NCBI GenBank assembly: GCA_024741835.1
Contig: JAENRP010000219.1
Span: 1 to 64,000, forward strand
Direction: 5' to 3'
DNA: 64,000 nucleotides
Source of the DNA: Diplocarpon mali
Lineage: Eukaryota > Ascomycota > Leotiomycetes > Helotiales > Drepanopezizaceae
Shown here: one piece after another, positions 5,821 through 55,859 of the stretch
Layout: each line of letters begins with the position of its first letter
Position numbering within the stretch: position 1 is the first letter of the stretch
Notes under the pieces: model-generated
What the model was told of the DNA's origin: nothing
The model's input: the letters and a program-made list of their open reading frames with translations, nothing else
Databases searched by the model: none
Position numbers and translations under genes: made by a program

Positions 5821-5888
5821 ACTCCTAGGCCTGGCCTATAAGTGACTTTAACGCAGATCAATTCCACTCCTAGGCCCAGCCTACGAGT
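5821..5888 (+). repeat. Two palindromes 45 bp apart in gypsy 1 pol
   Basis: 23-bp palindromes at 5821-5843 and 5866-5888. The 45-bp spacing is the same as in the array at 3799. They lie between RNase H and integrase, another inter-domain linker, and read NSTPRPGL..V in frame. Confidence 0.9.
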
Positions 5889-5939
5889 GACGATTATGCC
5901 TATCTCACTAATAGAGGCACCTGCTAACCCGACGTCTAG

Positions 5940-19912: not shown

Positions 19913-20212
19913 TATTGAGATAGGTAATACAGCTATCACTCCGATGTATTATCATATGACCCTACTGCTTAGTTAATAGGATATTAATACATATATAGCT
20001 ATAGGGAAGAAAGGGGTAACCTTCCTTCCTTAACTCTTACTAATATATCGACTATCGACCTTTAAAAGCCTCCTTTACCTATTGCGCCGACTTACTTAAG
20101 CTTAATAGGTTATAAGCCTTAGCTAGACTGATAATAGATTATTAACTTCCTTTAAAAAGCACTTACGCTGCAACTATTAATAGGAAGTTGAATAAGACTT
20201 ATTATAAAACAG
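19913..20212 (+). repeat. Copia C 5' LTR (195 bp) plus about 105 bp of leader
   Basis: LTR 19913-20107 starts TATTGAGATAGG (ancestral TGTTGAG). The leader 20108-20210 matches the inward flank of the copia A LTR (9863-9963, inverted), including an AACTTCC..GGAAGTT inverted pair. Cut at 20213 by the LTR of D. No target duplication with either 39473 or any nearer partner was found. Confidence 0.85.
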
Positions 20213-20448
20213 AGGGGAGACAACACAAGAACAGGCCTAAGGGAAGACCCAAAAACAAGAGGAGGAAGCACCACAAGCGGGCTCTCTTAAACAAGATATT
20301 AGGAACAAGTCCTAAGTATGGGGTATATTCAGTACTTATAGCAATACGCGCTGTCTTTATATATAGAAGATAGCCCTTTTATCCTCCTACTATCTTGCGC
20401 CGATTATATGATATATATTATAGGACCTATCTATCTTAGGTCTCTATA
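20213..20448 (-). repeat. 3' LTR of D
   Basis: About 236 bp, TATAAAACAG..TCTCTATA in plus reading; matches 35700-35944 with C to T and G to A differences and small indels. It contains the open stretch 20188-20373, which is not a gene. Confidence 0.85.
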
Positions 20449-20783
20449 TATATTCTAAATAATAAAAGTAGTGGCCCTTACTACTATTAGTAAAGAATAT
20501 AAAATAATACAGGTTAAGGCAATAGCATATCAATTAGCAAACCCTAAGTGCGAGAAAACTAATATATTAAAAGGCCTAAACTAGGGCTATATTATTAAAA
20601 AAGAAAANNNNNNNNNNNNNNNNNNNNNNNNNNNNNNNNNNNNNNNNNNNNNNNNNNNNNNNNNNNNNNTTATATACGCTTTTCACTTATAGGCTAGGCC
20701 TAGGAGTTAGAAAACGAAACTAGCAAAATAAATAAACAAGCTATAGAATCGTAAAAACAATTAAAATAGAATTAACCTAGGTG
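20449..20783 (-). other. 3' untranslated region of D with a sequencing gap
   Basis: Holds 62 N (20608-20669) and a palindrome at 20685-20707 just beside the gap. The part near the LTR (TTTACTAATAGTAGTAAGGGCC in minus reading) matches H and H2. Confidence 0.75.
20608..20669. other. Assembly gap (62 N)
   Basis: Run of N in the 3' untranslated region of element D. Gaps occur in the matching region of H (43944-44044) and H2 (55269-55351). Confidence 1.
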
Positions 20784-23700
20784 TCAGTTTTCCTTAGTTC
20801 TTTTTAAAGGATAGGAAGAACTATTACTAGATAATACTCTCTTCGCCAAACGACTACTTCTTCTTATAGTATTGCTATTAGTGTCCGACGAGATAGGTCT
20901 TAGTATAGTAGGAGCTTCGGTAGTTTGGGCAAATGCTAGTATGCTTTAGCGGCTTCTATTAATAGGAAGAGAGACTTATATAGTAGCATTATCGTTATTA
21001 TTATTATTATTATCCTTAAGGGAATTATTAGTAATAAAGGAAGGGGAGGCGGGAGATTATATAGATACTACTTCCTTAGCCTTGCCCTTTGCTAAATCAA
21101 GTTGCGGGCCGGGCCTAGGAGTCGTATTAAGGGTTTTTATATAAGGCTTCTTAATACTATACTTTTTAAGAAGTATCGTTTTATCAATTAGGTTATTAGC
21201 TTTAATATTATTATTTATATCTTTAGTCTTTATTTAAGACTTATCGCTATATAATTATAGCTCTAGTTATTAAACTAGCTTTTAAATACTAGCAAAATCT
21301 TTAAAAAGTTCTTATTTGTACTTCTTCAGATATATTATCAGCTGAGATATATCTTTTGCAAATAAATCCTTTATAGTTATTACTACTAATAGGTTATTCT
21401 ATAATCGTCTTCTTACAAGAGCGTCTAATAGTAGATTACCTTTTGTTATACTAAGTATTATATAAAACTTAGCTAAGGATTCTCTAGTAATACTCTATCT
21501 TACTATATTTGGTTTCTTTATATAGATAGAATCGATAATGAATTCTTCTAGGTCAGCGCTATTCTTAAGTGATTTATTGCTAATAACTTTCGTATAGTTA
21601 TTACTAATAGTAAGAAAACCACCCTTTCTAGGTTTTCTATTAGAGTCTAGGTTAATAAAGGTACCTTATCTTATAAATACTAAGAATAGAGTAGTCTTAT
21701 TGGAAATATACTCCTTTAGAATTGTTCTATCCTTAGTATTCAATTCTTTCTATTAAGCTACGCTCTATGCTAGATTTAGCAAGATCTATTAAGAGTTCTT
21801 AAGATAATAGGATATAAGTATAGATAACTTATAAGACTTTTCCTATATAGTAAATTCTTTAATCAATTATTTGATAATAGGGATTATATAATAGTCAATA
21901 GTTCTGCTATTAGGAGAATTGACCTATAAGCCAGGCCTAGGAGTTAATCTTACGAATCTTAAGTTAGCGTTAATCTTAGTAGAAACAATTCGCAAATGGT
22001 AATTAATACTTATAAACTATATAGGCTTAGGATATGCTACTAGCTTATATAAAGAATTATGATAAGTTAATAGAGCACTAAGATATAGACTATAGTATAT
22101 CCTTAAGGTCTGCTATATTAAGCTGTAAGTCATATTATAAAGGAAGGCGGAAGGAAGGCTTAGCTTCTTATTTAAGGTTCGGAAATGGTATTAGTACATT
22201 TCTAGCTCCTCTTATACTAATATTAAAAATGAATTCTTTCTATAATTACTATAACTATATATATGCATAGTGCTTAAAAAGGTATAACTTAACAACTTAG
22301 GCATATTTAAGAAACCTTTAGTGCAAAGCGATATTAGGGTATCCTTAGTTAGTATAGTCTTATACTAGGCGGGAGTCTAAGCGATATTATAGAATAATTT
22401 AAAGGCCTTAGGTGCTACTTAGAACTTAAAGAAACCTAATAATATATCTTTCTTGATTTGGTTAGCTATTTTATTACTAGTAGCCACAATTGCATAGTTT
22501 CTAAGGTGCAATAAGAATAAAGTTAGATTGGGTATAGTGCAAAATTTATATATATTAGAAGAAACTTGCTTATTGGTTAGAGTTACTATTATCAGCCTAT
22601 AATATTATACATATTATCATTTATATAAAGTATAAAATTTTTCGAAACTGAAGTCCTTAAATATCCCTATTATAAATTTGCTTAATTATGTCTTTATCTT
22701 TAGTATTACTGCAATTTTGAATCTATTATTATATTAAAGTATTATCTTAATATTAAGGGAAACTTCATAGTACTCTATAGATATAATTATTATACTACTT
22801 TCTGGCTTTTCTTTAAGGATATAGTAGTCGCCCTTCGATTTCTTATACTTAATAAAGAAATGTATAATATTATCTATAGAAAATTCGTCTTATTATAGCT
22901 TTATGATTTGTTTGACGGCTCTTGCCGTTGCCTCTTATGCTAATAAAACTTCTCCTCGACCTTCCTTTTTCAAACGCTTTATTATTGACTTATAGAATTT
23001 TAGAATAAATTTTTGCAAGTCTTTAGAAAAGGTCTATACGATATCGGATATATCCTTCTTAGTATTATTAAAAATTTCCATTATATTAGTAATAGGGTTA
23101 TTCTCTTTATTAGTCAGATCATCTTTAAAGTTTATATTATTACGTATACTGACCCGTAGGCCAGGCTTATAAGTCAACTTCTTTGCTACTAGTATTCTAG
23201 GTATTTAGGGCATCTCTAAGGATAGTGAATCAAACTTATCTAAGTCTAATGATTAGTGATCGCAATAGTCCGCTGTTTGAGTTCCAGGTATTATAGGTAC
23301 TTCTTACTTAAGGGCCTTATTATCATATGCTAATTCGACTTATAGGCCAGGCCTACGAGTCAAATTTTCCTTATTAGTTAGTTCTGCTAAGGGTAGCAAC
23401 ATTTTCTAAGCGGCGGGAACTATAAACTCCTATCTCTCTATCTTATTATCGAAGTAGTTTATAGTATACTTAGTAAGATAGATCATCTTTTCTTTTATAA
23501 TAAGTAAACCGCATTAGGACTATTATAGGCCAAGGGTATTTAAAATTGTCTAATCCAAAAGGGCTAAATTGTTATACTACGCAGGATCGTCTTTTATAGT
23601 TTGAATAGTAGAGTGCATAATAGTACTTAAGAACCCTACAAATTTTCTACTTCTTATATTATTGCCTTAGAGTTTCTTTATACCTTCTTAGATAGTAAAG

Positions 23701-24203
23701 TGATTTAACACTTATATAGCCTTTGCTATAGGTTGGTATATCTTAAAAATTCCACCTAGTCTTTACAAAGTGTTATTAGCAGTAATATCGCTTATAAAGT
23801 AGGTCTGGAAGAGTGTACTACAAGTGCTACTTATAAATTGTAATAATCTCTTTATATACTTATTCTTCTTATCCCGGTTTTTTTAAAACAAATCAACTAA
23901 TATAAAGTAACTTTAATACTTTTGTAAAAACTTTTCCTAATCAATCCCTTTTACCTTAAGCTTACCCTTAAGGAAATTATCAAAGCCTAGGAATCCCTCT
24001 TCAACTATAGAGATTCTATAGTTAAGCATATTAATAGACGAATTCAGGAATACTTACTATTCTATTTTACCTAATATTCTATAGGTAGTTATAATATCTT
24101 CTAATAATTAAAGAGACTTGCTATCCTACGAGAATCCACCCTTTAATATCAGTTTATTATTAGCGGTACTTATTGACTTGCTACCTAAGGCAATAACTGA
24201 CAT
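20784..24203 (-). pseudogene. ORF-B of element D: unknown protein of about 1,139 codons (RIP-broken)
   Basis: I do not recognise this protein. Taking RIP-type TAG/TAA as former Gln/Trp, one minus-strand frame runs from an ATG at 24201-24203 (MSVIALGSKS) to a TGA at 20784-20786 (..LKRTKEN), 3,420 bp, a multiple of three. It is helix-rich, Lys/Ile/Leu-rich, ending in a Ser/Arg/Asn-rich tail with SSRLAKR. It is paralogous to ORF-A: PIAKAIQ near codon 156 (ORF-A 157), IRSRKF against IRSRRF, and RAVKQ at codon 428 (ORF-A 410). Palindromes lie at codons about 281, 343, 753 and 1027. I see no nuclease, protease or polymerase motif. It could be a structural, env-like or accessory protein, but nothing in the sequence decides this. 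The open piece 24305-24523 is in the spacer before it. Confidence 0.7.
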
Positions 24204-24720
24204 GCTCTTCTTAAGTATAGCTTTCTTATTTAAGCTCAGCAGTACTATAATAAATTAGTTAGCAAGGAGTAGCTTTAAATAAAGAGATGATTATTTAGGA
24301 AAGATTAACGATATAAAAGGCCTGTATTAGAAAAGATTAATAATAGAAAGATAATAGTAGTTGGTGCTAATATTATAGGTCTAATAGGGTTATAGAAAAA
24401 GTAAAAAAAGTAAAATCGTAGTATAGGGAGAGGCTTATTTATAGAGTTTGGAATCGCGCTAATGCATAAAGGAAAAGTGGGTATAAAGAGGCTAGAAGTA
24501 GAAACAAAAGTAGGATATAACATATATAAGGACCTATAATTGGTAAATGATAATTGTTAAAAGTAAGGACAATATTTCAAAGGTAAACGTTAGAAAGTTA
24601 TATATAAAGGGAATAATCAAAGAATAAATTATATAAAGAGTAAAGTAAATAAAGAATATATATAAAATAGAATAATAGGTTAAGAATAAAGAGGTATAGG
24701 TATATAGAAAGTAGATAATC
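24204..24720. other. Spacer between ORF-A and ORF-B, no clear gene
   Basis: 517 bp. It contains a 72-codon open minus-strand stretch (24305-24523) that is hydrophobic and very A/T-rich, with no family resemblance I can see. Confidence 0.5.
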
Positions 24721-27700
24721 CTAAAAAATTCAATATCTAATTCGCAATCTCTCCAAATGGTTTTTAAGAAAGGGGTAGACTATAATTCTCTAGATCAAGT
24801 CGACTCAATTGTTAGTTCTATTATCACTTTAAAGTCTTCTTCTCTTATATTAGTTCTTATTTTTCAGCGATTTCTTAACTTTAAGGACCTCTCTTAAAGG
24901 ATCTTCTATTAGTACCCTTAGATTTGGTGACCGAGGTTTATCCAGACCATCTTATAGGCTTAAGTCAGCCGAGTCCAACCTCACTCGCAAGCTAGGCTCG
25001 CGAGTCAGTTTTAGCGTTTTTAAGCTTAAGGGTAAAAATAGGGGATTAGTCCCCAAATCAGGGTCTAACGCTATACTAGTATCTCGGTTTGTCTCTTTTC
25101 CGAATTTTCTTATAATAATGCCTTTATCAATTAGTATATTAGGCTCTCGGATAGCATTTACTTTATTGTATTATCCTTAAGACTTAAGTCTATAAAGAAG
25201 CGACTTAGTATTTATAACATTCGTCTAAGCCTTAATAAGGGCGTTAAAGAGTTTTTAATTATATTTTACAAAGTGGATTTTCAATTTATCCTTATTAAAA
25301 AGGAATAACTCCTATACTTCGATTATAATAGAAGGATCTATCTAAGAGCGCTGACTAATAATAGCTTTAAAGAGGCTACTATAGTTCTTAAGATAAAAAG
25401 CTGCCTTAAAAGGTATAGTAGTTCTACTTATATTAATCTATTAAAGTACTAAGGGTTGCTTTAAAGCAAAGATTGAAAAGATAAGATCAGAGATTTAAGT
25501 CTCATTTTCTAAGGTATTCTTATTGCAAATGGCTGTATAGTTATTATAAAAGGCTATAAAACCACTAGTCTTATAAGAATTGTCCGAAAGTATTTTAAAA
25601 AGGTATCCCTATTTTATTATTACTATAATTAGATTGCTATTATTAGTAATAGGTTATAAGATCTCCTTTTGCTTTAATTTTGCAGTTATTTAAGCTAGTT
25701 GAGATTTTGAACTAAGTGCTTAAGAAGTCTATCGACTTATCTTCTTTATAAATGGAGTGAGTTTTATATTCGATTGAGAGCTGATCCATTTATTAAGGCT
25801 TTTTAAAGCAGGTCCTTATCCGATTAATAGGATTTGATAATCTAAGACTTGCTTTCTAATAAAATTGACTCGCAGGCTAGGACCGCGAGTAAAAATCGGA
25901 ATTTCTTTATTAGTAGTACTTGCATCTCTCTTTATCGAAACGACTTAATTATAAAGATTAAGGCCAATTAATTAGAGAAGTTTAAGATAGGCCATAAGTT
26001 GATAGGCTCCTTTACTTTTTACTATTATAGCTAAGAGGTAGAGTCTATAATATATTTAAAGGACTTATTAAGTGAGATTGAATATTATATTATAAAGAAA
26101 ATAAGAAGGTATAAAGGTTGCATTATCTATAGGGCAGAAGTGATAAAGGTATATCTTTACTTCTTATTTTATAATAAAGAGGAATATACTTATAAAAGTA
26201 CTATTATTAGTAGTAAAATTGTCGGTTAAGAAGCGGCATTCGAAGGGTTTAAGTATTACAATTGACCCTTCTTCCTCTATTTCCTCCTATTATTTATTGC
26301 TTAATAATATCGATAAGAAGGAATTGTTCTATTCAATCGGCTTTAACGCCTTTAAGGCTTCGAGATCAGCCTTGAATTTTACAGCACCTAAAGATGCCTC
26401 TATTATTAATAGGTTAGATTTGCGTATCTTTAAAGAGATAAAGAACTAATTATTAAAGTGGATTAGAAAAAGATCGATATCTTCTACTATATAGAGAAGT
26501 TTAAAGTGTTTAATAGTTTTATTAATATCAAATCCTTTATAATTGAGATTATAGTAAACCGAAAGAGAGCGAATATAAAGGTTATAAAGTCTTCTCCCTT
26601 CGATTCCTACGCTAGGAAGATACTATTAAAAGCGAGTCTTTATTATAAAAGACACTTAAATATTATATCGTTCTTTAAGCTTAAGGTTAAGAATAACCAA
26701 TTGAAACATATTGCTATAATTACAAATGTCCTAATCAATAGATTCCTCTTTGCGTTCTCTTTCTTATAAGATAAAATAGTCTCGCTTAAAATCTAAGAGA
26801 CTAGGTTCTTAACTTTTATAATTATTAAAGAATTAAATAATATCTATAAGGGCGAACTTATCTAAGATAAGCTATTAAATCTATTTAACAGCTCTCTTAG
26901 TTGTCTTTAGAGTAGTAGGAATAGGGTCTTCCCTTATATTATCGTTTTTAAAACAGTTATATATAGATATAAAGAAGTTAAGAACTAGCTCCTTTAAGTT
27001 ATTAAGAAAGGAGTTTAAGCGAGCGCGCAATCCTTTGGTTTTAAATTGCAAATTAGCTAAGGTAGTTATCGAACGATCTATCCTTTTTAAAGGTCGAGTT
27101 AAAATAGGTCGTTTAATTAAAGGCAAGTCCTTTAAAGATTCCGAAAATTCTAAAGAGGCTATATTAAGCATTTAGGCAGTTTGTTCAATAGCGGTTTCTA
27201 AAATCATTTTAATAAGAGGCAAGTTTGGTCTAGTTCTAAAATTCTTATTTTTAACTCTTAGTTTAAAACCGCAAGTCAAATTATATAGTTTAGCACTTAT
27301 TATCTCTTTAAGTTAAAAAGCGAATTTTAAGGCAAGCTTGATTATAAATAACTAATTCCCTTCTTTATTATTAAAGAAATCTCGTTTAAACCCTATTATA
27401 GGAGTCCAGTTCTCTTTTAAAATAAGCAAACTATAGGCAGAAGCGTAAAGCCTTAGCATATTAACAATAGTACTATTAGGTAAAGTAATATCTATAGCCT
27501 AATTTGATCTTTTTATAACCTTATTAGCTACTATAAGTATTATATTAAATAGGCCTATAAATCTGCGACTGCGAATTCGATTGCTTTAGAATTTTGCTAC
27601 TCCTTTTTAAATAATAAAGAAATTGAGAATCTGAATAGCTTTAGCGATAGGAGTATTTTCCTTAAGAATTTTTAATAATACTTATCTTCTATTATTAAAA

Positions 27701-28122
27701 TTAATATTTATTAAGAAGCGCAAATGAAATAGGAGTCTTCTCTTATCAATGGCTAAATTATTTAATTATCAAATAGATTCTTCTCTTTTATCTTAATCCA
27801 TTTTGAAAGTATTAGCTAAGGTTATATATTAATCTACATCGGCTAAGAATTCCTCTTTAAAGATTCCCTTTAATCTCAATTCTTCGGTTAAGAAGTTGTC
27901 AAATTAGAGAATTCCAAGGGCTACTTAAATTGAAAGGTTATTAATAGCATTTGCGTAAGTTAAAAGGAGTTTTTATTACTCTATATCTCCTAAGGTTGTA
28001 TAGGTCGATTTAAAGCTCTTTAATAATGCAATAGCTCTACTGTCTTAAGAGAAGTTTATAACTAGTATTTATTTATCTCCTATTGTAATAGATAAAACCA
28101 TTTGTAAGTTCTTTAAAGGCAT
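24721..28122 (-). pseudogene. ORF-A of element D: unknown protein of about 1,133 codons (RIP-broken)
   Basis: Unrecognised. One minus-strand frame runs from an ATG at 28120-28122 (MPLKNLQMVL) to a TAG at 24721-24723 (..CELDIEFF), 3,402 bp, a multiple of three, broken mainly by TAG/TAA at former Gln/Trp sites. The open block 26881-27171 is part of it. It is paralogous to ORF-B along its length: FDNFL near codon 78, PIAKAIQ near 157, IRSRRF near 180, RAVKQ at 410, and an NNYTAICNK block matching NNYTKVISNK. Palindromes fall at codons about 282, 744 and 1039. It sits directly after the integrase end of pol. The plus-strand open stretches at 26219-26769 are antisense shadows. Function unknown. 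Confidence 0.7.
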
Positions 28123-31950: not shown

Positions 31951-34900
31951 TTTTTTAAAATAATTAATAAATTGTCGAAATTTATAAAACGAACTCTCTT
32001 CTCTACCTTATTTTTCTTTTTTCTTAATTATTAAGCTAATAAAACGCCGATTGCACCAATTTTCAAAATTCCAGATTTAACTCTTAGTCTAAGACCGCGA
32101 GTTAAATTGCTATTATTTAAAATTGGCAAACTCACCTTTCTTTTACTATAACTCCTTGCTAGGTGCCTTCTTTTACTAGCATTAAGCCTAGCCTTTATAC
32201 TAGCTAATCGTTTCTTAAAATCTTATTTTAGAATTCGGCTATATCTCTTATGATAATCATTTATCCTTTTAAAGATCGATCTATATTTTAAAGGCTAGCT
32301 TTTATAAGCCTATCTTTAAGATAATTAAATATTAGCTAAGATTTTAAAATAAAGGGCATTCTTAAAAGAATATTATTTAAAGAATTCTCTATTATTAGAA
32401 AGTTAGTATAATTAATAATTCCTTTAACTTTAACCTTTACGTTTTTCACCTATCTATTAAAATTGTATTTCGATCTAGAGACAGTTAAATAAATAAGGAG
32501 TTAATTGCTAACGATTATCAATTAAGCTATTTCTACCACTTTTCTAATTATTACATTAACTTTTGAACTATAATCGATTAGAGCCTTTGCTTTAACTGAT
32601 TCTTCTATAGAATAAATAATAATAGGGCTTTTTATTATAACTGCTAAATAATTTCAATTGATATTCTAAGATATTAAAGCTATTATTATAATATTATAAT
32701 ACCTTTGGGTTCCTTTATCTTTTGTAATCTAGAGACATTTGATTAAGGCTAGGTGCTTCTTAAAGTTCTTTCGCGTTACAATTTCTATTTCCTTATTATT
32801 ATTTAAATCTTTAAAGGCAACTAGGATATGCTTTCCTAGCACTTTATTAAAGCGTCTAATTAAATCAAATAGGTCTTTAAATGTAAGGTTAATTTGCTAG
32901 GCTATAATATTCTCTATAGCTTTCTCTATTGCAGTTAAACCAATGTATTTATCAACGAATTTCTCTTATTTTAATATTTATCTCTTTCGCTTAAGGTCAA
33001 GGGTCCGCGCAATAACTTCAACTTCTTAATCTTTAAGCTTAAAGCTATCTTCGTCTATTATATCTCTAATTAATTTATCTGCTATATCGGCTTTATCTTT
33101 ATCTACTGCGGTTCTAGACTATTAGGTATCTTTTAGCATTTGGACTCTATATTGAGATTCCTGAGTTGCATATACTAATTTCTAGACTTTGGCTAGTTTT
33201 ATTAGTATTAGTAGAGTAAAAGATTTAAAAGGACGCTGAGAATTCCAAGGGTTCTTAGATATAGAAGCAGTATTAATATCGGCTGAAATATTATTATTAA
33301 CCTATCCTAAGATAGAAATGCCTCTAACTTCTATAGCTATTTGATTAAAAGCTAGGTCCTTAAGAACTCCCTTAGGTAGATTGTTAGTTGGACTTATATA
33401 TATATAAGTTGGAATTTTAGCGTTTATATCTATAATACACTATTGTTCGACCAAATTCTTATCCTATTTTATACTATATATTATTATTCGAATAGTCTAT
33501 AACTATAAGCGATTCTAGTGCTTTTTAATAGGGATAGCTTCTGGCCTAGGATCCTTAATGCAAAGCATCCTATACTTATTAATATATATGACCTTAGTAT
33601 TAATAAAACGAAGGAAAAGAGGGCAATTATTGCGATACTTATATAGAGCGCAGTTGGGTTCTTTATTATTGCAAAAGTTATAGGTTAGTTGTCTTCTATT
33701 GCTATTTCTTTAGTACCTTATAGTATTGATATTAGTAAAGTGCTAGTTGGGATTAATTCCTCCTTCTTTAGCTAGCTATTGCGTTCTTATATTAGCTGGT
33801 TATTCCGAATGATAAGAAGTAAGAGTCTGAAAACGGGAACCACTAGGTTGGCTTATAGTAGCTGAGTTTTGTCTATTACTAAACTAAGGAATATGCTGTT
33901 TTTTTTATAAAAGATCATTAATCCTAGTTTCTAAGCTCTGGATTTAGAGTTCTGCAAATTAGGTCTTAAGTTCTTTAATTCTAGGGTTGGATCTTACTCC
34001 TAGGTTAGGCCTGCGAGTGAAAGGTATGACTATTAGGTTCTTCTTTGCCTCTTCTATAACTTCTAAAGCTTTCGAGTATTCTTAGATTAGGCTTTTGAGG
34101 TCTTTAGTATAGGAGGGAGTAGGGGCTTTTTCCTACTTTATAGTATTAATAGTTCTCTTATTAAGATCTGATTTTAAAGTAAAGGCTAAGAATTCCTTAA
34201 ATGAGGCGAAGGTTATAAGATCTTGCTTATTAATCTTAAAATGCTTAATAATCTTGTTTTAAAGGCTAGTAGGTAATTTAAGTAAGAAAAGGCGGCCTCT
34301 TTCAACTTCGCTAAGTATTTTCTAGCTAATTAAGGTATTTAATATATAAGTAAAAGTCTAATAGTAGTTTTTAAGTTCCTTAAGAGTATAAGTAATTAGA
34401 ATAAATTCTTTTAAAAAAGCTAGGGTATTGCGAATCTACTATCTATTAAATTCTTAGAATTCAGACTTAAGAGCCTTGATAAGGAGTTCCTATAAACTAT
34501 ACGTTTTCCATTCAGGGAGGGATTTGATAATATCTTTACTTATATAGTTATAGTAGTAAGGAAGTCGAGAAATCATATCCTCTTATATAATACTAAAATC
34601 GTAATAAGTTTCCTTATATTACTTAAGGAAATTAGTAATATTGGCGCTTATAAAGTAAGGAGCGCTAAAGGAACTAGGGAGGGGAAAGTGATTAGTAATA
34701 GCTTTAAATACAGCTATTATCGTTTTATATTAACTGTCTAGGTTAATAGAATCTATAAGGGGCAAAGGGGAAGCTTTGATATTGCGAGATTGATTGCTAA
34801 AAGGAGTACTTTGAAATTCAAAAGGGCTTAAAGAGCGTTCAAAATCCGAGTCAATCTTAAAGTGACTAAGACGAGTTTGAAAAGATTCGGACAAAGGGTT

Positions 34901-35030
34901 AGTAAAAAGTTTAAAATTATTATTATTATTAGTATTTTTAAATATTAATATTAAAAAAGTAAGTAGCAGTCCTAAGTTATTTAAAGACGTCTTTTTATCC
35001 TCCTACTTATAGGCTAGGCCTAGGAGTAGA
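31951..35030 (-). pseudogene. Element D gag and protease region (relic)
   Basis: The 33990-35000 part matches the gag of H (42380-43440) and H2 (55860-56860) in reverse orientation, including palindromes at the same places (33996 against 43357 and 55870; 35005 against 42381 and 56840). Between 32000 and 33900 lies less conserved sequence, where protease and the gag-pol junction are expected. I could not place the protease active site. A palindrome is at 32080-32102. Confidence 0.65.
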
Positions 35031-35699
35031 ATTCCGGATTCTACTAAAAGTTTAATCCAAGTTTGCTAAGAGATTCTAAGTAGGTGTTAAATAGCTAATA
35101 GGAGCGTTGCGACTAATTGTAATAAGATAAGGTTTACTTAATCTAAAACTAATTTCTAAGATAAGGTTTATATTTAAGATTCTTCTTAGCCTTTAAGCCA
35201 ATTCCTATTAGTCTTTAGAATAAAGGGGTCTTTAGAGACGATTCTAAAGCAATTTTTAGAGTTCTATTAAGCTAAGGCGGCTGAATTATTAGATTCGAAT
35301 TTCTAAAGATTCTAAGGAGGCACTTCCTATTAGAGTTTGCACTTAGTATTACTTAAGTACTTAAAACTACTGCTATTTAAGATTACTATTATAAGGTTTA
35401 TTAAACTTTTCATACCGAAAAGCCAAAAATTCCGAGAATCTCAAAGTTAAGGAAGAAAATAGGGGTTTTTAAAGCAGAGCCGAAAAGGGAAAATCTAAGG
35501 TTATTAATAATTGCTAAATGAAAATCGATAGTTCTAAGTAATTAGGCGATTAAGGATAAGGGTTTTAAAGTTGATTAAAATACTATAAGTATTTCGAAGA
35601 CATATTTTAAAGGCCGGTCTTTTATCTACGAACTAAGAGATTAATAAGATCGTATAAGGATGGAAATCTTAAGAAATCGGTCCTTGCGTAGGTTATTAA
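35031..35699 (-). other. Leader of element D, no gene
   Basis: Between the gag start and the 5' LTR; closely parallels 41688-42380 (H) and 56863-57576 (H2). The primer-site-like sequence lies at the LTR edge. Confidence 0.6.
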
Positions 35700-35944
35700 T
35701 ATAAAATAAAAGGGAGATAATATAAGAATAGGCCTAAGGGAAGACCTAAAAACAAGAGGAAGAAGTACTATAAGCGGGCTCTCTTAGATAAGATGTTAGG
35801 AATAAGTCTTAAGTATAGGGTATATTTAGTACTATGGCGATACGCGCTATCTCTATATATAAAAGGTGGCCCTTTTATCCTCCTACTGGCCTGCGCCGAT
35901 TATATGATATATGTCACGAGACCTATCCATCTCAGGTCTTTATA
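35700..35944 (-). repeat. 5' LTR of D
   Basis: 245 bp, TATAAAATAAAAGGGAG..CAGGTCTTTATA in plus reading. The part around 35860-35935 is clean (CTGGCCTGCGCC, GTCACGAGACC), the left part is RIPed. Confidence 0.87.
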
Positions 35945-38900
35945 ATAATAGGCTATTAAAGCTATTAAAAGCCAAAAGCCTATTAAAGTATTAGCTAATA
36001 TATAGAAGATTTGAATATTTAAAGTTAAAGAAATTAAAGGGCTTATATAAGGTCTTGACCTTAAAATAGAAGATCTAAGTATTAAAGGATCGCTTAATAT
36101 ACCGAATTTGCAAGCTAATAAAACTTCGAAATCAGACGCAAACTAAGCTTAATTTCTAAAAAGATTCAATACTAGCGCTAATATCTATTAATACTATTAG
36201 ACTATTTATAACCTTAATTAAAGGAAATAATTAGTTTTCTTAAATAGTAGATAACTCTACTTAGCAGATATAGACTATTTGCGCTAAGACCAAATCTAAG
36301 CTTATAAAAAAGCTAGAAACTTAAAAAGTAATAGAGGAATACCAGACCTAATTAAAGCTAATAGCTATTAGGTCTAATAATATATTAAAGATTAAGGCAA
36401 AGTTTAATAAATAGGTAAAATAAGGAGTTTGTTATAAACTAATTATAATATATGAAGGTTCCTATTAAAATAGTATTGCTAAGCGAAGTATCTAATAAGT
36501 AGAGACCGACTATTGCACTTTACTATAAGATACTAACTTACTATTAGAATTCTAAGACCTTGCGGTTAAGGCAGATATATACCTACGAAATAGAATAGGT
36601 AGTAGACTAATAGTTAATAGCACTTGAATATTACTATATAAGGCATATTTTAAATAGAAATTAAGCTTAGACTATATCTGCGTCTTTAAAAGTATCTGCT
36701 ACTCCTATATTAGCCTAAAGTCCTAGCTTATAGGTATAAAGAGTAAGAAGCTAATAAATTAAGGTAAAGAGTATATATTTATTAAGTATATTAAATAGAT
36801 AATAAAGTAATAGATAGTATATATATTAGATCTAAGGCAAGTAATTATATCTTTAGTAGTTAAGTTTGATAAATCTTAAAATAAGGAGGAGCTATCCTTA
36901 AAGCTCTATATACTTAGAGATTCGCAAGGTATACTATTCAATAGTAATACTATTAAGCCGAACTAATAACCCCTTTCTCTTAACTTAAGTATATTAAGCG
37001 TACCTGCTAATTAACGACCTATTAGTCGCCTAAAGACCGAATAGACTATTCCTATCATCTGCGAACTATTTAAAGTATAAAATAACTTTAATATTATTAT
37101 CCCTTTAATTAAAGTACCTATAGTAAAGGATATTCCTAAAATAGGTATAAGTAATAATAAGCCTCTACTATTAGAAAGCGATTCCTTAAATGATAAGCCT
37201 ATAGAACCTATAGTCAAACCTATATCTTTAAAGAGGAATAGAGACTTAAAATTAGAAGATAACTTAAATAAATGCAAGTCTAAGTGTATCTAAGCTATAA
37301 TAGTATATAAGATCTATAAGCTCGAACTTTAATAAAGCTTTAATAAAGATAATACATTCCTAGCCGCTAGAGGGATAATGAAAATCTCTCTTCTAAAGAC
37401 GTATAATAAAGCTATTAATAATCTAAAGAATAAAGCAGTATAAAATAAGGCAATTTAAGAGGAGATAAGCTCTTTTATTATAAATGGTATATAGATAGAG
37501 GAACTAATACTAAAGGATATGAACCTAGTATTAATAAAGTGGGTCTTTATAATTAAGATATATGCAAATAGGACCTTAGAATATTATAAGGTAAGGCTTA
37601 TAGCTAAGGGCTTCTCCTAATAGTATGGAAAAGACTACTTCAATACATTTATACTAATAGTTCATATAAATACCCTTTGCATATTTATAGTAATAGTAGC
37701 TGCTAAGGACCTTGAATGCAAATAGTACAATATTAAAAATACATTTACTAAAGCAACTATAAAGGAACGGATTTTTCTATTCCAACCTAATAGTATTCTT
37801 ATATACGCTGGCCACTATTTTTATATACTTCGCAGTATCTATAGGCTTAAATAATCAGCCTATAATTAGAACCTCTTATATAGCTCTACTTTAATAGAAA
37901 TAGGATTCGTTTAAAGCCTAGCTAACCCTTATTTATTTACTTATACTAAGCGTAAAATCAAGTTGCTATTATATATTAATAATATTACTATAGCTATGAA
38001 AACAACTATTTAATTAAATTGGTTCTTTATAACAATTCGGAAACGTTTTAATACTAAGGATCTAAGGGGAATTTATAAGATCCTTAGTATCTGCGTTATA
38101 AGGAACTGTTCTACTTAAGAACTTTAGTTAAACTAAGAGCAGTATATTAAGAAGATCCTAGATCGAATAGGACTTTCTACTTATACTCCTAACTTTAAGC
38201 TAAAGCGTACTCTAATCGAAGGAAAGTATAATAAGTTAGAGCCTACTAATAAAAATAAGTAAAGAGGAGATCTGAAGAAGTACTAATAGGATATTAAAGC
38301 GATTATATATACTATAGTATATATAAGACTAGATATTGCCTTTGTTATTAAGCAATTTAATCAGAACTTAAAGGATCTAATGATTTAATATAAGAATGCA
38401 GTCAAGCGATTTAAAAGGTACCTTCGATTAATAATTATATAAAAGGTAAGATATAGACTAACGAAATATATAAGCGTAAAGCTTAAGGTATATATTGATT
38501 TTAACTAGGCAAATATAAAAGGTTGGAAAAGTATATCTAGAAGCGTAGTAGTACTATATAGTAGACCTATATTATAAGGAAGTAGGAAGTAGAAATCAAT
38601 AGCTATTGCAAGCACTAAGGCCAAATATATATTAATATTATTAAATTGCAAGCAAGGATTATAGATCGCCTAAGTTCTAAAAGATATAGGTTTCATTAAG
38701 TATATTAGATAAGATAGGAATTATATTAATCTTTAAATAGATAATATAAAGGTAATTGTACTTATAAAGAATCCATACTTATATAAGCGATTAAAATATA
38801 TTAATATTATCTATTACTTTATCTGCGACCTTATTATAAAGAATAAGTTATTAATTACTTATATCCTAACTAATCGAATAATAGTAGATGGATTTATAAA

Positions 38901-38980
38901 GCTACTAAAGATAGTTGCAAAGTTCGAAACATTTGAAGATATACTAGAGTTATAGAAGATAGTAGGGGCTTAGTAAGCTT
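35945..38980 (+). pseudogene. Copia C integrase, RT and RNase H (relic)
   Basis: Integrase C-terminal part about 36560-36900: KADIYLRNRI, then KLSLDYICVFKS (family K.SL.HLRVFG), then a VIISLVVKFD strand. RT about 37500-38150: WVFIIKIYANRTLEYYKVRLIAKGFS (in pieces the family W.FK.K....G...YKARLVAKGF), NTFTKATI (family D..TAFLNG), and YINNI at about 37972 for YVDDI with both Asp lost. RNase H about 38580-38900 with KNPYLYKRLKYINIIYYF (family NP..H.R.KHID..YHF) and a final F-I-K-L-L. Dead by stops and active-site loss. Confidence 0.88.
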
Positions 38981-38987
38981 AAGGACG

Positions 38988-39139
38988 ACTCTTAGGCCCG
39001 CCTTGCGAGTTAGGTTATATAGTCTTATAGAGGAAAGTTTTTTTTAAATCAACTCCTAGGCCTAGACTGCGAATTAAGTCATATAGTCTTATAAAGGAAC
39101 GCTTTTGGGAAATTTGACTCTTAGTCCTGCCTTATAAGT
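38988..39139 (+). repeat. Three palindromes in the copia C 3' tail, spacing 64-65 bp
   Basis: Copies at 38988-39010, 39052-39074 and 39117-39139, embedded in a tandem unit with 'tatatagtcttata(g/a)agga'. The same triplet is in C2 at 61771, 61836 and 61898. The spacing is not a multiple of three, as expected outside coding sequence. Confidence 0.9.
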
Positions 39140-39277
39140 AGGGTTAGTGATTTTAATAGAGGTTGCTATTAATTAATTGTTTTTAATTTAAAGAGATACT
39201 TAAGAGTTAGATTAGCGCAAAAGGATAGTTATTATTTTCTTAACTGTAGGTTAATTAAAGTAAGGTCTGAGTAGAGG

Positions 39278-39472
39278 TATTAAGATAGGTAATATAGCTA
39301 TCACTCTGATATATTATTATATAACCCTACTGCTTAATTAGTAGGATATTAATATATATATAGCTATAGGGAAGAAAGGGATAACCTTCCTTCCTTAACT
39401 CTTACTAATATATCGACTATCGGCCTTTAGAAGCCTCCTTTACCTACTGCGCCGACTTACTTAAGCTCAATA
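39278..39472 (+). repeat. 3' LTR of copia C (195 bp)
   Basis: TATTAAGATAGG..AAGCTCAATA (ancestral TGTTGAG..CAACA). Matches 9964-10158, 19913-20107 and 61438-61632 in length and sequence. Confidence 0.9.
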
Positions 39473-41444
39473 TATTCTTATATAAAATAGCAGCTAAAGA
39501 TCTGCCGATCGCCTTATAGAACTTATCTTTAGAGACTCCTTTAAAGTCATCTACAGTTCCTTCTTTAGTAGGACCTCTATAAGGAATTATCACCCTTAAG
39601 CTCTAGTCGCTATTTGCCTTTTTAGAGACTGGCGAAGTAGCTTCTAATTCGCTTACTTCTACTCTTAAGTTTCTAAGCGGGTCTCTTAAAGAATTTGGAT
39701 TTAAGTTAAAGCCTTTTATATTATTAGTTAAAGGCTATAGAGTAGTATTAGTCTATAATACAGGCTCTTCTTATATAGTGGCTTCTTCTATAGCGATTGC
39801 ATTTAGCCTTACGATAAGCTCCGATTCCTTAAAAATGCCTTCGAACTTAGTATCCTAAGCTCTCTCTCCTTTTCTAATCAATTAGAGGGTTATCTCAAGT
39901 TCTTAGCGCGATATAGGGTTTGCGCGCTTAGCTTTTGGACTATAGAAGAGAGACTTATCGAATTCGATATTATAAGTCGTTATTACTTGCTAAAGCATAG
40001 GAACTTAGATTCTATAAATATTAAAGGTAATATATCTAATTAAGTAACCTAAGTGCCCTTATAGTTCAATTTTAAAGGTTCGGCGGTCCCTTCCCGCCTC
40101 CCTTTCCTTAATTAAAGGGTATGCGTAAGCGCTATACGTATAAACGCGACTTCAGTTAGGCTTTAAGCTCGCTATCATCTACTTAATAAGTAGTAGCTTA
40201 TAAAATCGAAAATACTACTTAAACCAATTATAAAAAGCCTTGCTTAATAAGATTATCTTCTTCTTAATAAGTAAGGAGATATTATAAAGGTATATAGCAG
40301 CCTTTACAACCTTTGGCCAAAGGCTTACTAGAAGCCTAGCGTAGATTCTCATTTTAATAGAGCGTTTAATCAACTCCCTTCCTACTCGCTCTGCGCCTCT
40401 ATTAGGTTGGTATATATAAGTAGGAGTAAGCTCTAAATCGATTCCCTCCTCTTTTACCTATCTTTAGTACTTTATAAGAGAGTCTTCCCTTAAGGAGATC
40501 ATTAAAGTATTATTATCTTACCTAATCTTATAAATAGAAAGCCTATATTAGCGTTTCACTTATACTTCAAAGGCCTAGAGGACCTTTATAACTACGTCTC
40601 TACCCTTCGATCTTAATAAAAACGTCTAAAGTATACTACTATACTTGTCCTTAATTAAAAGAACCTATAAGCAACTATTATATAAGTTGTTTAAAAAGTT
40701 AAAAAGATCCTAAGAGATCTTAAAGAAGGGCCTTAGAGATCGGTTCTTAAAGGTAGCGCGAGAAATAACTTGCTTAGCAAATGCTACTGCGCATATAGGG
40801 CACTCTAGCCTTTATATTCCCCTAATCTTTACTCCCTTAGCGCACTTAACTAGCGCTTAGAGAGCCTCTGCGCCTAGGTAGCTAGCGCAAAGGTACCAAG
40901 TATACGCGTTATTATCCTATACCTTAGTAGGTATATAGCTAGACTAAAACCTATTATAAAGCGTCGTCTTAGCTATAGGAAACGCTATTAAGGTAGAGAA
41001 GTCATATTAAAGCATATTTAAAAGATCCAAATAGTTGATAGGCTTATATTTAAAAAAAACGAGATTATAGTAACGCTCTAATTAAGCTCGCTTTACAAAA
41101 TCTTCAATACTCTTAAAGCGCAAAGTAAGGTCTACCCTAGAGTATTAAAAACCCTTATCTATAAGGAGCCTCTTTAAGATAATATTAGTAGTAAACTCCT
41201 TTATAATAGTAACGTTGCGAAGCGTTATCCCTATAGAAGAGCTATCACGCTATAAAAGAGAGTCTATTATATATCTATTACCTCTCCTAATGATTAAGAG
41301 TCTTAAGGTACCTGCTTTAATATATTACTACAAGTCGCCAAAAGGCTTAAAGGTGCCTGCAATAAGTAAATCCTTTAAATTAATGATATAAGTAGCTACG
41401 CAATTATCAAGGAGCGTACTTAAGGAGAGCGGGTGGCGTTCTAG
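39473..41444 (-). pseudogene. Copia G protease C-terminus and integrase (relic)
   Basis: Protease: LERHPLSLSTLLDNCVATYI, where LLDNC.AT stands for the LLDSGATxH active site with mutations. Then CPICAVAFAKQVISR (family C..C..AK....R) of the integrase finger near 40740-40800, DNNTLMISLREDS (DN catalytic step), EEGIDLELTPTY and QPNRGAERVGRE near 40380-40450 (family EP.GGAERAG, catalytic Glu), and AAIYLYNI. These identify a fungal copia integrase. Inactivated by stops. Confidence 0.88.
41440..41444. repeat. Target-site duplication CTAG of H (41441-41444; partner 44431-44434)
   Basis: Four bases CTAG on each side of H; the fifth bases differ. H2 of the same family also shows 4 bp (CTAT). Confidence 0.8.
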
Positions 41445-42379
41445 TATAGAGACCTGGAAGTGGAGGATCTTGTGACATAGGTCATATGGTCAGATGAGGA
41501 CTAAGAAAGGGGTATATATAGGACTACTATTGTACTTAGAGATAGCGCGCAATGCTAACCACCTATTCTACCTCTAACTAGTGAATTGTCTTAGTTCTTC
41601 TTTGGAGAGCCTGCTTATAGTGCTTCCTCCCTCTTTGTCTTTGGTCTTTACGTAGGCCTATTCTTGTATTATCTCCTCCCTCTTATATTAGTGACCTACG
41701 CAGGGACGATTCCTTTGAGATTTCGTCTTTATACGACTTCTCCTTTTGATTCTCTTAGTTCGTAGATAAGAGATCAACCCTTTGAAAACCTCTTAAAATA
41801 ATAATCATTTAGTTATTTGGAACTGTCGGTTGTCATTCTTCTATTATCGACCTTGCAATCACTTAGTTATTTAGAACTATCGATTGCCACTCTTTATTAT
41901 TAATAACCTTAGATTTTCCCTTTTTAGCTCTGCTTCGAAAACCCCTATTTTTCTTCCTTAACTCTAAGATTTTCGGAATTTTCGGCTTCTTAGTATGAAA
42001 AGTTTGGCAAACCCTATAATAGCAATCTTAAATAGTAATAGTTTTGAGTACTTAAGTAATACTAAGCGCAAACTCTAATCGGAAGTATCTCTTTAGAATC
42101 TTTAGAAATCCAAATCTGATAATCCAGCTGCCTCGGCTTGATAGAACTTTGAAAACTGCCTTAGAATCGTCTTTAGAGACCCCTTTATTCTAAGGACTAA
42201 TAGGAATTATCCTAAAAGCTAAGATGAATCTTTCTTAAAAACTTTATTTTAGAAATTAGTCTTTAACTTGATAAACCTTTACTTACTATTAGTGATTGTA
42301 GTACCCTTATTTGCTATTTTATACTTATTAAAGAAGTCTTGGTAAAGTATAAATAAACTTTTAGCAGAAGCCGGATTTT

Positions 42380-43440
42380 CACTCTTAGGCCAGGCCTGTA
42401 AGTAGGAATATAAAAATACAATTTTGCGCGACTTAAGTTCTTTACCTTCCCCTTTGACAACTGCACCTGCTTTTTTAATATTAATACTTGAAAATACTAA
42501 AAATATTAATTTTAAACCTCCTTCCGACCCTTTGCCTAAATCCTTTTAAGCCCGTCCTAGTTACTTTAAGATTGACTCGGATTCTGAAAACTCCTTAGAA
42601 TACCTTAGGCCTTGTATTCGACCTAGCTCTCCTCCTACTAAAACGAATAAAGCGATAATAGCCGCTTTTAAAGCTATTACTAATCATTTTCCCCTCCTTA
42701 GTTCCCTTAGCGCTTCTTATTTTACTAAAGCTAATATTACTGATTTCTTTAAATAATATAAGGAGACTTGCTATAATTTTGATATTAGATATAATAAGAT
42801 AATCAATTGACTTTCCTACTATTGCGACTAAACTAGTAAAGATATTATTAAATCTCTACTTAAGTAGAAGCTTCGCAAGTCTTAGGAACTACTTATTAAG
42901 GCTTTTAAAGCTAAATTCTAGGAATTCGATAGATAGTAGATTCGCAATACTTTGGCCTTTCTAAAGGAGTTTATTCTTATTACTTGCACTCTTAAGGAAC
43001 TTAAAAACTACTATTAGACCTTTATATAAGTGTCGAATACCTTAATTGATTAGAAGATTCTTAGTAAAGTTGAAAGAGGACGCCTTTTCTTATTTAGATT
43101 GCCTATTAGCCTTTAAAATAAGATTATCAAGCATTTTAGAATTAATAAGCGTAATCTAGTAATATACGCTTAATTCGAAGACTTCTTAACCTTTGCCTTA
43201 AAATCAGACTTTAGCAAAAGGACTATTAAGATAATAGAAAAAGAAAAAGAGCCTACCTCCTCTTTTACTAAAGATCTTAAAAGCCTAGTATAAGAATATT
43301 CAAAGGCTCTAAAGGTTATTAAAGAGGTAAAGAGAAATCTAATAGTAATTCCCTTCACTTACGGTCTTAGCTTAAGAGTAAAATCGGCCTTAAAAATCAA
43401 GGAACTTAAAGCTTAGTTTTTTAAATTCCGCATTTAACGT
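42380..43440 (+). pseudogene. Gag of H (relic)
   Basis: Broken frame following a palindrome at 42381-42403. Readable blocks include a VTLRLTRI stretch and, near 43060-43180, LVKLKEDAFSYL and KIRLSSIL, a helical capsid-like pattern; homologous to D (33990-35000) and H2 (55860-56860). Gln/Trp stops throughout. A palindrome at 43357-43379 marks its end. The minus-strand open stretch 43170-43358 is an antisense shadow. Confidence 0.68.
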
Positions 43441-44187
43441 TTGGAAACCTTAATTAAAGGCCTTCTTTAAGAAACTTATTGCGCCCTTTAGTTTGGTAAT
43501 TAATAGGCCTTAGAAGGCAAAAACTAGCACGCGAACTTTAAATACTTAAATCCAGCTTCCCTTAGGTTGAATAAGCGAGTTGCCACCTTAGAAAGGCTTG
43601 ATAATCATATATAGCTATATTAAAGAAATTCCTAGATTATTAGTCGAATTTTATACAAAGCTTAGATTTTCTTTAGTAAGGACGCCTTTTAAGTTAGTTA
43701 AAGTATATATGCTTAAGATTACTTGAAATTGTCTTTGAATTTTCTTTGAAATTGCGATTTAATAGCTTTAATAACTTTAAGCTTTTGACTCGCGGTCTTA
43801 GATTAGGAGTCGCATTACCAAAGGAGAAAAAGGAGTTTTTATTATTTTTATTCGTTTACTACTGCACCTCCCCCCTTTCCTCTTCCCTCTCTCCCTTTAT
43901 ATATTTCTTTAAAATCCACTCGCGGGCCTAACCTATAAGTTAANNNNNNNNNNNNNNNNNNNNNNNNNNNNNNNNNNNNNNNNNNNNNNNNNNNNNNNNN
44001 NNNNNNNNNNNNNNNNNNNNNNNNNNNNNNNNNNNNNNNNNNNNTTTTCCTACTTTTACAACTTTAAATACTAACCTTACTTGCACTTATTATTTTTATA
44101 AATAGGAATTAGTATTCTCAACTTGTAAGAGTCTTATATTCTTTACTAATAGTAGTAAGGGCCGCTACTTAAATTAGTTAAAGTATA
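43441..44187 (+). other. 3' untranslated region of H with assembly gap
   Basis: Contains palindromes at 43788-43810 and 43918-43940 and 101 N (43944-44044) immediately after the second. The open stretch 43746-43931 spans them and is not conserved as a gene. The final part matches D and H2. Confidence 0.7.
43944..44044. other. Assembly gap (101 N)
   Basis: Starts three bases after a palindrome copy in the 3' region of H. Confidence 1.
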
Positions 44188-44430
44188 TATAAAGACTTAA
44201 AAGTAGAGGATCTTATAATATAGGTTATATAGTTAGATAAGGATTAAGAAAGGGATATATATAGGACTACTATTATACTTAAAGATAGCGCGCAATGCTA
44301 ACTACCTATTTTACCCTTAACTAGTAAATTGTCCTAGTTCTTCTTTAGAGAGCCTGCTTATGGTACTTCCTCCCTCTTTGTCTTTGGTCTTTACGTAGGC
44401 CTATTCTTGTGTTGTCTCCTCCCTCTTATA

Positions 44431-54723: not shown

Positions 54724-54864
54724 ATGAACGAGTATCGATCCTATAAGAGACTATATAAAGCTGTAAAAGAAGCGTGGGAATCGATAACAATTGAAAGGAT
54801 TAGAGAATTAATTAGGGAAATGCCAAAGAGATATAAAGCTATGATCGCAGCAAGAGGAGGCTAT
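54724..54864 (+). pseudogene. Tc1/mariner transposase C-terminal fragment
   Basis: About 47 codons: AWESITIERIRELIREMPKR and AMIAARGGYYK. This matches the end of Tc1-type transposases (W..I....I..LI.SMP.R...VI.A.GG..KY). The frame is free of RIP stops up to the H2 insertion inside the GG-Y codons. No Asp/Glu triad precedes it, only about 200 bp to the transposon end. It is a deletion remnant that could not move itself. Confidence 0.8.
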
Positions 54865-55268
54865 TATAAGAGGGAGCAGGAACAACACCTGAGAATAGGC
54901 CTATATAAAGACCAAAGATAAAGAGGGAGGAAGCACTATAAGCGGGCTCTTTGAAAAAGAACTAGGACAATTTACTAGTTAGGGGTAGAATAGGTAGTTA
55001 GTATTGCGCGCTATCTTTAAGTATAATAGTAGTCCTGTTTATATCCCTTTCTTAATCCTTATTTAATTATATAACTTATATTATAAGATCCTTTACTTCT
55101 AGGTCTTTATATATACCTTAATTAACTTAAGTAGTAGCCCCTACTACTATTAATAAAGAATATAAGACTTTTATAGGTTAAGAATACTAATCCCTATTTA
55201 TAAAAATAATAAGTATAAGTAAGGTTAGTATCTAAAGTTATAAAGGTAAGGAGAGGAAAGAGGGTTTT

Positions 55269-55351
55269 NNNNNNNNNNNNNNNNNNNNNNNNNNNNNNNN
55301 NNNNNNNNNNNNNNNNNNNNNNNNNNNNNNNNNNNNNNNNNNNNNNNNNNN
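55269..55351. other. Assembly gap (83 N)
   Basis: In the 3' region of H2, in the position matching the gap in H. Confidence 1.
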
Positions 55352-55859
55352 TTAAAGAAATATATAGAAGGAGAGGGGGAAGGGGGGAGGTGCGGTGGTA
55401 AATGAATAAAAATGATAAAAACTCCTTTTCCTCCTTTGGTAATGCGACTCCTAGTCTAGGACCGCGAGTCAAAAGCTTGAAGTTGTTAAAGCTATTAAAT
55501 TGTAATTTTAAAGAAAATTCAATAATAATTTTAAGTAATCCTATACTCTAACCAACTTAAGAGGCGTCCTTATTAAAGAAAATCTAAGCTTTATATAAAA
55601 TTAGACTAATATTTTAGGAATTTCTTTAATATAGCTATATATGATTATTAAGCCTTTCTAAGGTAGCAACTCACTTATTTAACCTAAGGGAAGCTGGATT
55701 TAAGTATTTAAAGTTCGCATATTAGTTTTTACCTTTTAAAGCCTATTGATTACTAAACTAAGAGGCGTAATAAGTTTCTTAAAGAAGGCCTTTGATTAAG
55801 GTTTTTAAATATTAAATATAGAGTTTAGAAAACTAGGCTTTAAGTTCCTTGATTTTTAA

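What the first reader, a model, noticed from the sequence alone, without database searches (positions are those of the whole stretch)
20784..28122. Two tandem paralogous long ORFs downstream of integrase in a giant Ty3/gypsy element
Element D encodes gag-pol and then ORF-A (24721-28122, 3,402 bp) and ORF-B (20784-24203, 3,420 bp) on the same strand. Both spans are multiples of three once RIP stops are ignored. They share motifs at matching codons: PIAKAIQ (157/156), IRSRRF/IRSRKF, RAVKQ (410/428) and an NNYT block. The extra coding part is about half the element. Gypsy elements may carry an env-like ORF here, but two large paralogs, with no motif I recognise, are unusual. Could be structural, env-like or accessory proteins.
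Basis: partly seen in the sequence, partly recalled or inferred. Interest (0 to 1): 0.88.

Follow-up and report, generated by a model that had tools for sequence, protein, structure and literature searches.

The report
Jumping element with a swappable gene
A very long retrotransposon in a fungus-like genome carries two related extra genes of unknown kind, and one of them exists in several old, recombining versions although the rest of the element is nearly uniform between copies, as if that gene were being kept diverse by selection.

Summary
On the minus strand, between ~250-bp LTRs (35696-35944 and 20199-20448), lies a 15.7-kb Ty3/gypsy-type element: gag, protease, RT, RNase H, integrase zinc finger, then A (24721-28122) and B (20784-24203). 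A and B are true paralogs (28% identity, E 7e-92). A pol piece and a B piece each match at least 150 places in the genome. A and B are in tandem in 20 of 20 copies picked for having both; five of seven copies with both LTRs show a 5-bp target duplication, one of them inexact. No copy examined lacks A+B with a duplication around the gap. Neither protein has a Pfam, PDB or viral-contig relative above chance. The unexpected result: counting only transversions, which RIP does not cause, LTR, gag, pol and A differ by 0-1.4% between six copies (two local exceptions), but B by up to 9%. Seven B classes occur among 37 copies, uncorrelated with pol, mosaic inside, with a strong excess of silent changes. 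B is an old, functional, recombining multi-allelic module in a homogenised element. Most likely A and B are intracellular accessory proteins, B setting a specificity under selection for diversity; that function is inferred.

The parts
35696..35944 (-). 5' LTR of element D
   Evidence: 84% identical over 250 bp to 20199-20448 in direct orientation; homologous 5' LTRs in 9 of 10 copies where the place was fetched
33900..35401 (-). gag region (exact start codon not set)
   Evidence: about 55% identical to gag of two short gag-only LTR elements in the window (55-60% for copy C12)
32000..33900 (-). rest of the gag frame, with aspartic protease near its 3' end
   Evidence: Asp_protease_2 E 6e-5, 24.1 bits against a cut-off of 24.3, in the matching frame of copy C12
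28131..32102 (-). pol frame: RT, RNase H, integrase zinc finger, then integrase core (inferred, not hit by Pfam)
   Evidence: window: RT_RNaseH E 3.6e-6, Integrase_H2C2 E 5e-4 (below its cut-off); copy C12: H2C2 E 3.9e-13, RNase H E 2.5e-12, Ty3 RT chain 4ol8 E 3.7e-25
24721..28122 (-). ORF A, 1133 aa plus stop, broken by RIP-type stops
24204..24720 (-). A-B spacer
   Evidence: mean transversion diversity 1.0-2.0% in the two 150-bp windows 24650-24351
20784..24203 (-). ORF B, 1139 aa plus stop, paralog of A; the multi-allelic gene
20608..20669 (.). run of N between B and the 3' LTR
20199..20448 (-). 3' LTR of element D
   Evidence: a homologous LTR follows B in 12 of 20 copies; of the other 8, three end at a contig end and five hold 842-865 N

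Best explanation
Shown: element D is a 15.7-kb Ty3/gypsy-type LTR retrotransposon family whose internal region carries, after integrase, two paralogous genes A and B from an old duplication. A is nearly uniform among copies; B exists in several deeply diverged, mutually recombining, purifying-selected classes that have been exchanged between otherwise near-identical elements. Inferred: the exchange happens by template switching between co-packaged RNAs during reverse transcription. A and B are soluble accessory proteins acting in the replication cycle, probably as partners. B sets a type-specific interaction (with its own particle or RNA, or with a host factor) in which rare types have an advantage, so that old B classes persist while the rest of the element is repeatedly swept to uniformity. 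The closest working analogy is the type-specific gag of yeast Ty1, where a self-encoded restriction factor limits elements of its own type and gag modules are swapped.
For: Paralogy. Integral to the element: tandem order in 20 of 20 fetched copies picked for having both, LTR after B in 12 of the 20, 5-bp duplication exact in C48, C330, C301, C390 and with one transition in C238, absent in C334 and the window copy. Selection on B: among 7 class representatives the non-silent/silent transversion ratio is 0.22 of that expected from the codons (1798/1357 against 41009/6865 possible); 65% of transversions at third positions in the 3-6% bin (127 non-independent pairs). Locality: 500-bp windows over six copies give 0-1.4% transversions for LTR-gag-pol-A with two local exceptions, and up to 9.2% in B; in 150-bp windows over eight copies the mean in B is 1.4-7.3%. 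Fairer test, copies taken from the pol list: pol mean 0.55% (max 1.1%), B mean 5.5% (max 9.5%) over 66 pairs of 12 copies; distances uncorrelated (Spearman -0.18, p 0.15); the four pairs with no pol transversion carry B 3.9-9.0% apart; 7 B classes among 37 copies at 1%, one pol class among 21. Recombination inside B: four-gamete incompatibility rises from 0.15 (<50 bp) to 0.53 (>2 kb) over 180 sites of 7 copies. Analogue: Ty1 gag swapping and type-specific control (PMC7055915: abstract and one results section read).
Against: No function is shown: no domain, no PDB relative above chance, structure models useless (pLDDT 26.5 and 27.5), no relative outside this genome could be sought except in viral contigs (none). 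Solubility is weakly supported: one window of A in copy C12 looks membrane-like (1.87). The mean pattern on B is purifying, not positive selection, so a diversity advantage is read from deep, unlinked lineages rather than from fast amino-acid change. Introgression from a diverged sister family with a preferred crossover near B could also give it. The change is not clean at the gene edge: the last 150-300 bp of A reach 1.3-3.3% and the spacer drops again to 1.0-2.0%, the 3' end of A in C188 is 2.6-3.3% and one gag window (33444, copy C142) 2.8-3.6% off. Every A and B match listed is broken; expression is unknown.
Confidence: 0.5

Rival explanations
1. Introgression without selection: diverged sister families met in one nucleus (hybridisation or horizontal transfer) and copies with different B were made by template switching near the 3' end; B diversity is simply what survived, with no function in specificity. 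(The rivals are not all exclusive of each other.)
For: Mosaic B with changes at both flanks; recombination and horizontal transfer are described for yeast Ty1 (PMC7055915).
Against: Random introgression should leave diverged tracts elsewhere; over six copies only one window outside the A end, spacer and B exceeds 2% (gag, C142). Seven classes are kept and pol and B are uncorrelated.
Confidence: 0.3
2. Env-like proteins: A and B, or B alone, are surface proteins for transfer between cells, B being diverse like a viral envelope.
For: Position after integrase; modular and diverse gene; one membrane-like window in A of copy C12 (residues 217-235, 1.87).
Against: Column-average hydropathy stays at or below 1.43 in A and 1.56 in B, although RIP favours hydrophobic codons; both end in a lysine/arginine-rich tail, which suggests a nuclear or nucleic-acid role; two 1130-residue paralogs are not an env pattern known to me (recall).
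Confidence: 0.1
3. A and B are extra structural proteins (a second capsid-like layer or RNA-binding scaffold), B diversity being a by-product of co-assembly specificity.
For: Helix-rich N-terminal part in both models, which are too poor to rely on; size; kept in all 20 copies fetched for it.
Against: No similarity to the element's gag (E 0.17 and 0.028, probability under 2%).
Confidence: 0.2
4. A+B is a separate nested element or host genes captured once and carried passively.
For: No known relatives; nested insertions occur in this family.
Against: Same place and order in 20 of 20 copies picked for having both and B in place in 11 of 14 copies taken from the pol list; LTRs and target duplications enclose everything; long-term purifying selection on B.
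Confidence: 0.02

Closest known systems
Ty3/gypsy LTR retrotransposons (Metaviridae)
   Same: LTRs, protease-RT-RNase H-integrase order, Ty3 RT as best PDB relative, 5-bp target duplication
   Different: 15.7 kb; two paralogous 1130-residue genes after integrase; one of them multi-allelic
Yeast Ty1 / Ty1' gag subfamilies with copy number control (PMC7055915, abstract and one section read)
   Same: A single gene of an LTR element occurs in diverged types swapped between elements by recombination
   Different: There the gene is gag and the mechanism is known; here it is an extra gene at the 3' end with no known function, and seven types at 1% among 37 copies of one genome
Bdelloid LTR retrotransposons with ORF3 genes (PMC5408684, abstract and discussion read)
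   Same: Additional genes after pol, some without membrane segments
   Different: Those are esterases, exonucleases or env; single genes as far as read; no homology to such families seen here
Ogre and Burro giant gypsy elements (PMC6431247, passages read)
   Same: Giant gypsy elements with extra coding parts
   Different: Ogre has 1-2 extra genes and its size is largely long LTRs; the extra domains of Burro in the passages lie before RT; hosts are plants and planarians

Membership tests
Ty3/gypsy LTR retrotransposon | Direct LTRs flanking the element | tested here: met
   7 copies with both LTRs, 0-2 transversions per pair
Ty3/gypsy LTR retrotransposon | Order protease, RT, RNase H, integrase | tested here: met
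   for protease (just under its cut-off), RNase H and integrase zinc finger, for RT, all in copy C12; the integrase core domain itself was not hit by Pfam
Ty3/gypsy LTR retrotransposon | RT closest to Ty3 | tested here: met
   Ty3 RT 4ol8 E 3.7e-25 and Ty3 Gag-Pol 7q5b E 1.4e-23 rank first of 7 PDB sequences matched; no RT tree was built
Ty3/gypsy LTR retrotransposon | Short target-site duplication | tested here: met
   5 of 7 copies, one of them with a transition; 2 of 7 without
Env-carrying gypsy element (errantivirus-like) | Membrane-spanning envelope protein after pol | tested here: inconclusive
   hydropathy only: column averages below 1.6, but 1.87 at A 217-235 in copy C12; RIP damage limits the test
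Env-carrying gypsy element (errantivirus-like) | Homology to known envelope or fusion proteins | tested here: not met
   no Pfam match in 16 A copies; in 16 B copies only three chance-level DUF matches; no PDB sequence match above chance
Ty1-like type-specific self-restriction | Diverged, swapped types of one gene | tested here: met
Ty1-like type-specific self-restriction | Restriction of same-type elements | not testable with these tools
   needs bench work

The most novel reading that the evidence does not exclude
B is a multi-allelic identity gene of a retrotransposon: each type interferes with, or is recognised against, its own type (self-restriction, exclusion or host recognition), which keeps rare types at an advantage and preserves a set of old types (seven seen here at 1%) in one genome, while the invariant paralog A is the common partner.
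Probability: 0.3. Interest if true: 0.87.

Novelty: new variant of a known kind. Interest (0 to 1): 0.68.

Why it matters
If right, an LTR retrotransposon carries a gene under selection for diversity of the kind known from envelopes and recognition loci, outside any recognisable envelope. It gives a natural system in which one genome holds a series of recombined types, and it makes testable whether retrotransposons compete through a type-specific product. It also adds two large protein families without known relatives in the libraries searched here.

Tried and rejected
Structure: two AlphaFold2 jobs gave pLDDT 26.5 and 27.5, so no fold search was run. The myoglobin matches of B in PDB (E 0.2 and weaker) are chance, as is probably an Asp match (E 4.5e-4) near the 5' end of copy C12. 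A link of A or B to gag was tested and not seen. Copies that at first looked like B without A (C578) or with A displaced (C149, C259): for C149 and C578 the stretch in question matches other window repeats; for C259 only the displaced start of A was seen. The idea that B varies merely because RIP is heavier there was rejected: only transversions were counted, and they are silent-biased. Six copies (C578, C549, C490, C525, C142, C188) had been picked from the B-block list for spread, so a second set was taken from the pol list: 20 of 150 listed hits, picked by hand from its upper part, skipping some whose expected B place ran off the contig or into another copy. C549, and A of C578 and C490, were left out of the codon tests. 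Paper searches for fungal gypsy elements with extra genes: searches returned no paper, and no title or abstract start listed by the others describes this pair. This covers open-licence PubMed Central only.

Full report
What is there. Low-stop frames on the minus strand run from about 35.4 kb down to 20.8 kb. Pfam finds RNase H and, below its cut-off, the integrase zinc finger in the window copy. In copy C12, which has fewer stops, it finds aspartic protease (just under its cut-off), RNase H and the zinc finger, and the PDB sequence search ranks Ty3 RT first. Direct LTRs of about 250 bp lie at 35696-35944 and 20199-20448. The element is thus a 15.7-kb Ty3/gypsy-type retrotransposon with A and B between integrase and the 3' LTR.

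Paralogy. A and B align over nearly their whole length at 28% identity (E 7e-92); profiles built from 16 copies of each give E 1.5e-77. Stops share columns 18 times against 2.8 expected, so the stops are best read as RIP damage to conserved codons.

Integral parts, not a nested element. The genome search scored 41 A matches of 612 candidates and 40 B matches of 618; all 81 contain stops. A 241-residue B block gives 150 of 485 scored and a 240-residue pol block 150 of 262 scored; the lists are cut by the scoring cap, so at least 150 places match each piece. If those were full-length copies they would be about 2.4 Mb or 5% of the genome (inference). Twenty copies with both genes were fetched: the LTR follows B in 12; of the other 8, three end at a contig end and five hold 842-865 N. 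Of 10 copies with the 5' end fetched, 9 show the 5' LTR and 6 show both; with the window copy that is 7. Four have an exact 5-bp duplication, one has it with a single transition, two (C334, window) have none. LTR pairs of these seven differ by 0-2 transversions in 243-249 sites, so insertions are young compared with the B classes.

The unexpected result. RIP makes transitions only, so I counted transversions. Over six copies (window, C12, C188, C142, C48, C525), 500-bp windows from the 5' LTR through gag, pol and A show 0-1.4%, with two exceptions: one gag window in C142 (2.8-3.6%) and the 3' end of A in C188 (2.6-3.3%). Windows in B reach 9.2%, in a patchwork: the window copy and C142 differ by 0.8% in one B window and 5.6-6.4% in the two beside it, while C188 and C525 share one B (0-0.4%). 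At 150 bp over eight copies the mean is 0-0.7% up to 24951, 1.3% and 3.3% over the end of A, 1.0-2.0% in the spacer, 5.0% from 24350, then 1.4-7.3% through B, 2.3% at 20750-20601, and 0, 0 and 1.6% beyond, where only three pairs remain. Several of these copies had been picked from a B list, so I repeated the test on copies taken from the pol list: among 12 copies with both pieces (66 pairs), pol differs by 0.55% on average (max 1.1%) and B by 5.5% (max 9.5%), with no correlation (Spearman -0.18, p 0.15). The four pairs with no pol transversion carry B 3.9-9.0% apart. Over 37 copies there are seven B classes at 1%, six at 2-3%; 21 pol pieces form one class. The largest class (22 of 37) is inflated by the way the first 20 copies were chosen.

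B was under selection as a protein. Among seven class representatives the non-silent/silent transversion ratio is 0.22 of the expected. For A it is 0.46 on far fewer changes (eight copies, 140 silent and 373 non-silent pairwise counts, non-independent), so selection on A is weaker evidence. Within B, residues 241-540 and 601-660 have more non-silent change (N/S 2.0-4.0 per 60-codon window) than the rest (0.5-1.4), still below the neutral ratio of 6.0. Incompatible site pairs rise with distance from 0.15 to 0.53, the mark of recombination inside B.

What the proteins may do. No Pfam family in 16 copies of A; in 16 of B only chance-level DUFs; no usable PDB relative; no relation to gag; fold models unusable. 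Column-average hydropathy stays below 1.6 in both, but A of copy C12 has one window of 1.87 at residues 217-235, so a membrane segment is not excluded. Both end in a lysine/arginine-rich tail. An intracellular accessory pair is therefore more likely than an envelope, not proven. That one partner is uniform and the other multi-allelic points to B as the part that meets something type-specific.

How it compares. In yeast Ty1, gag occurs in diverged types swapped between elements, and type decides copy number control (PMC7055915, abstract and one section). Rotifer LTR elements carry ORF3 genes of several origins (PMC5408684, abstract and discussion). Giant gypsy elements of plants and planarians carry other extra parts (PMC6431247, passages). 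None of these, as far as read, has a paralogous pair with one multi-allelic member. Membership in Ty3/gypsy is met on the features tested; the rest is a new variant. The functional reading remains inference.

Noticed in passing
window 5821-5844, 5866-5889, 20684-20707; 183 places in the genome: A 24-base near-palindromic motif (3 window hits at up to 3 mismatches; genome-wide 183 at up to 2, reversed control 0). Read in frame it gives T-P-R-P-G-L-R-V, and similar peptides are seen by eye inside gag, pol, A and B, some at matching places of A and B: perhaps an in-frame short repeat like the Rickettsia palindromic elements (recalled).
   Followed up: partly
41445-44434 and 54861-57823: Two short (about 3 kb) LTR elements that hold a gag about 55% identical to D gag and no pol that was seen; the LTRs of the first are 67-72% like those of D: gag-only non-autonomous relatives.
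   Followed up: partly
L039, aligned to window 32944-33444: Copy C142 has a gag stretch 2.8-3.6% diverged in transversions from the five other copies compared: a second, minor swapped patch.
   Followed up: no
35948-39484: Another repeat abuts the 5' LTR of D in the window; the same repeat lies between pol and A in copy C149. This may explain why the window copy shows no target duplication.
   Followed up: partly
L020 (copy C12): The C12 copy is far less hit by RIP (34 and 31 stops in A and B, GC 0.40 against 0.29), still broken.
   Followed up: no
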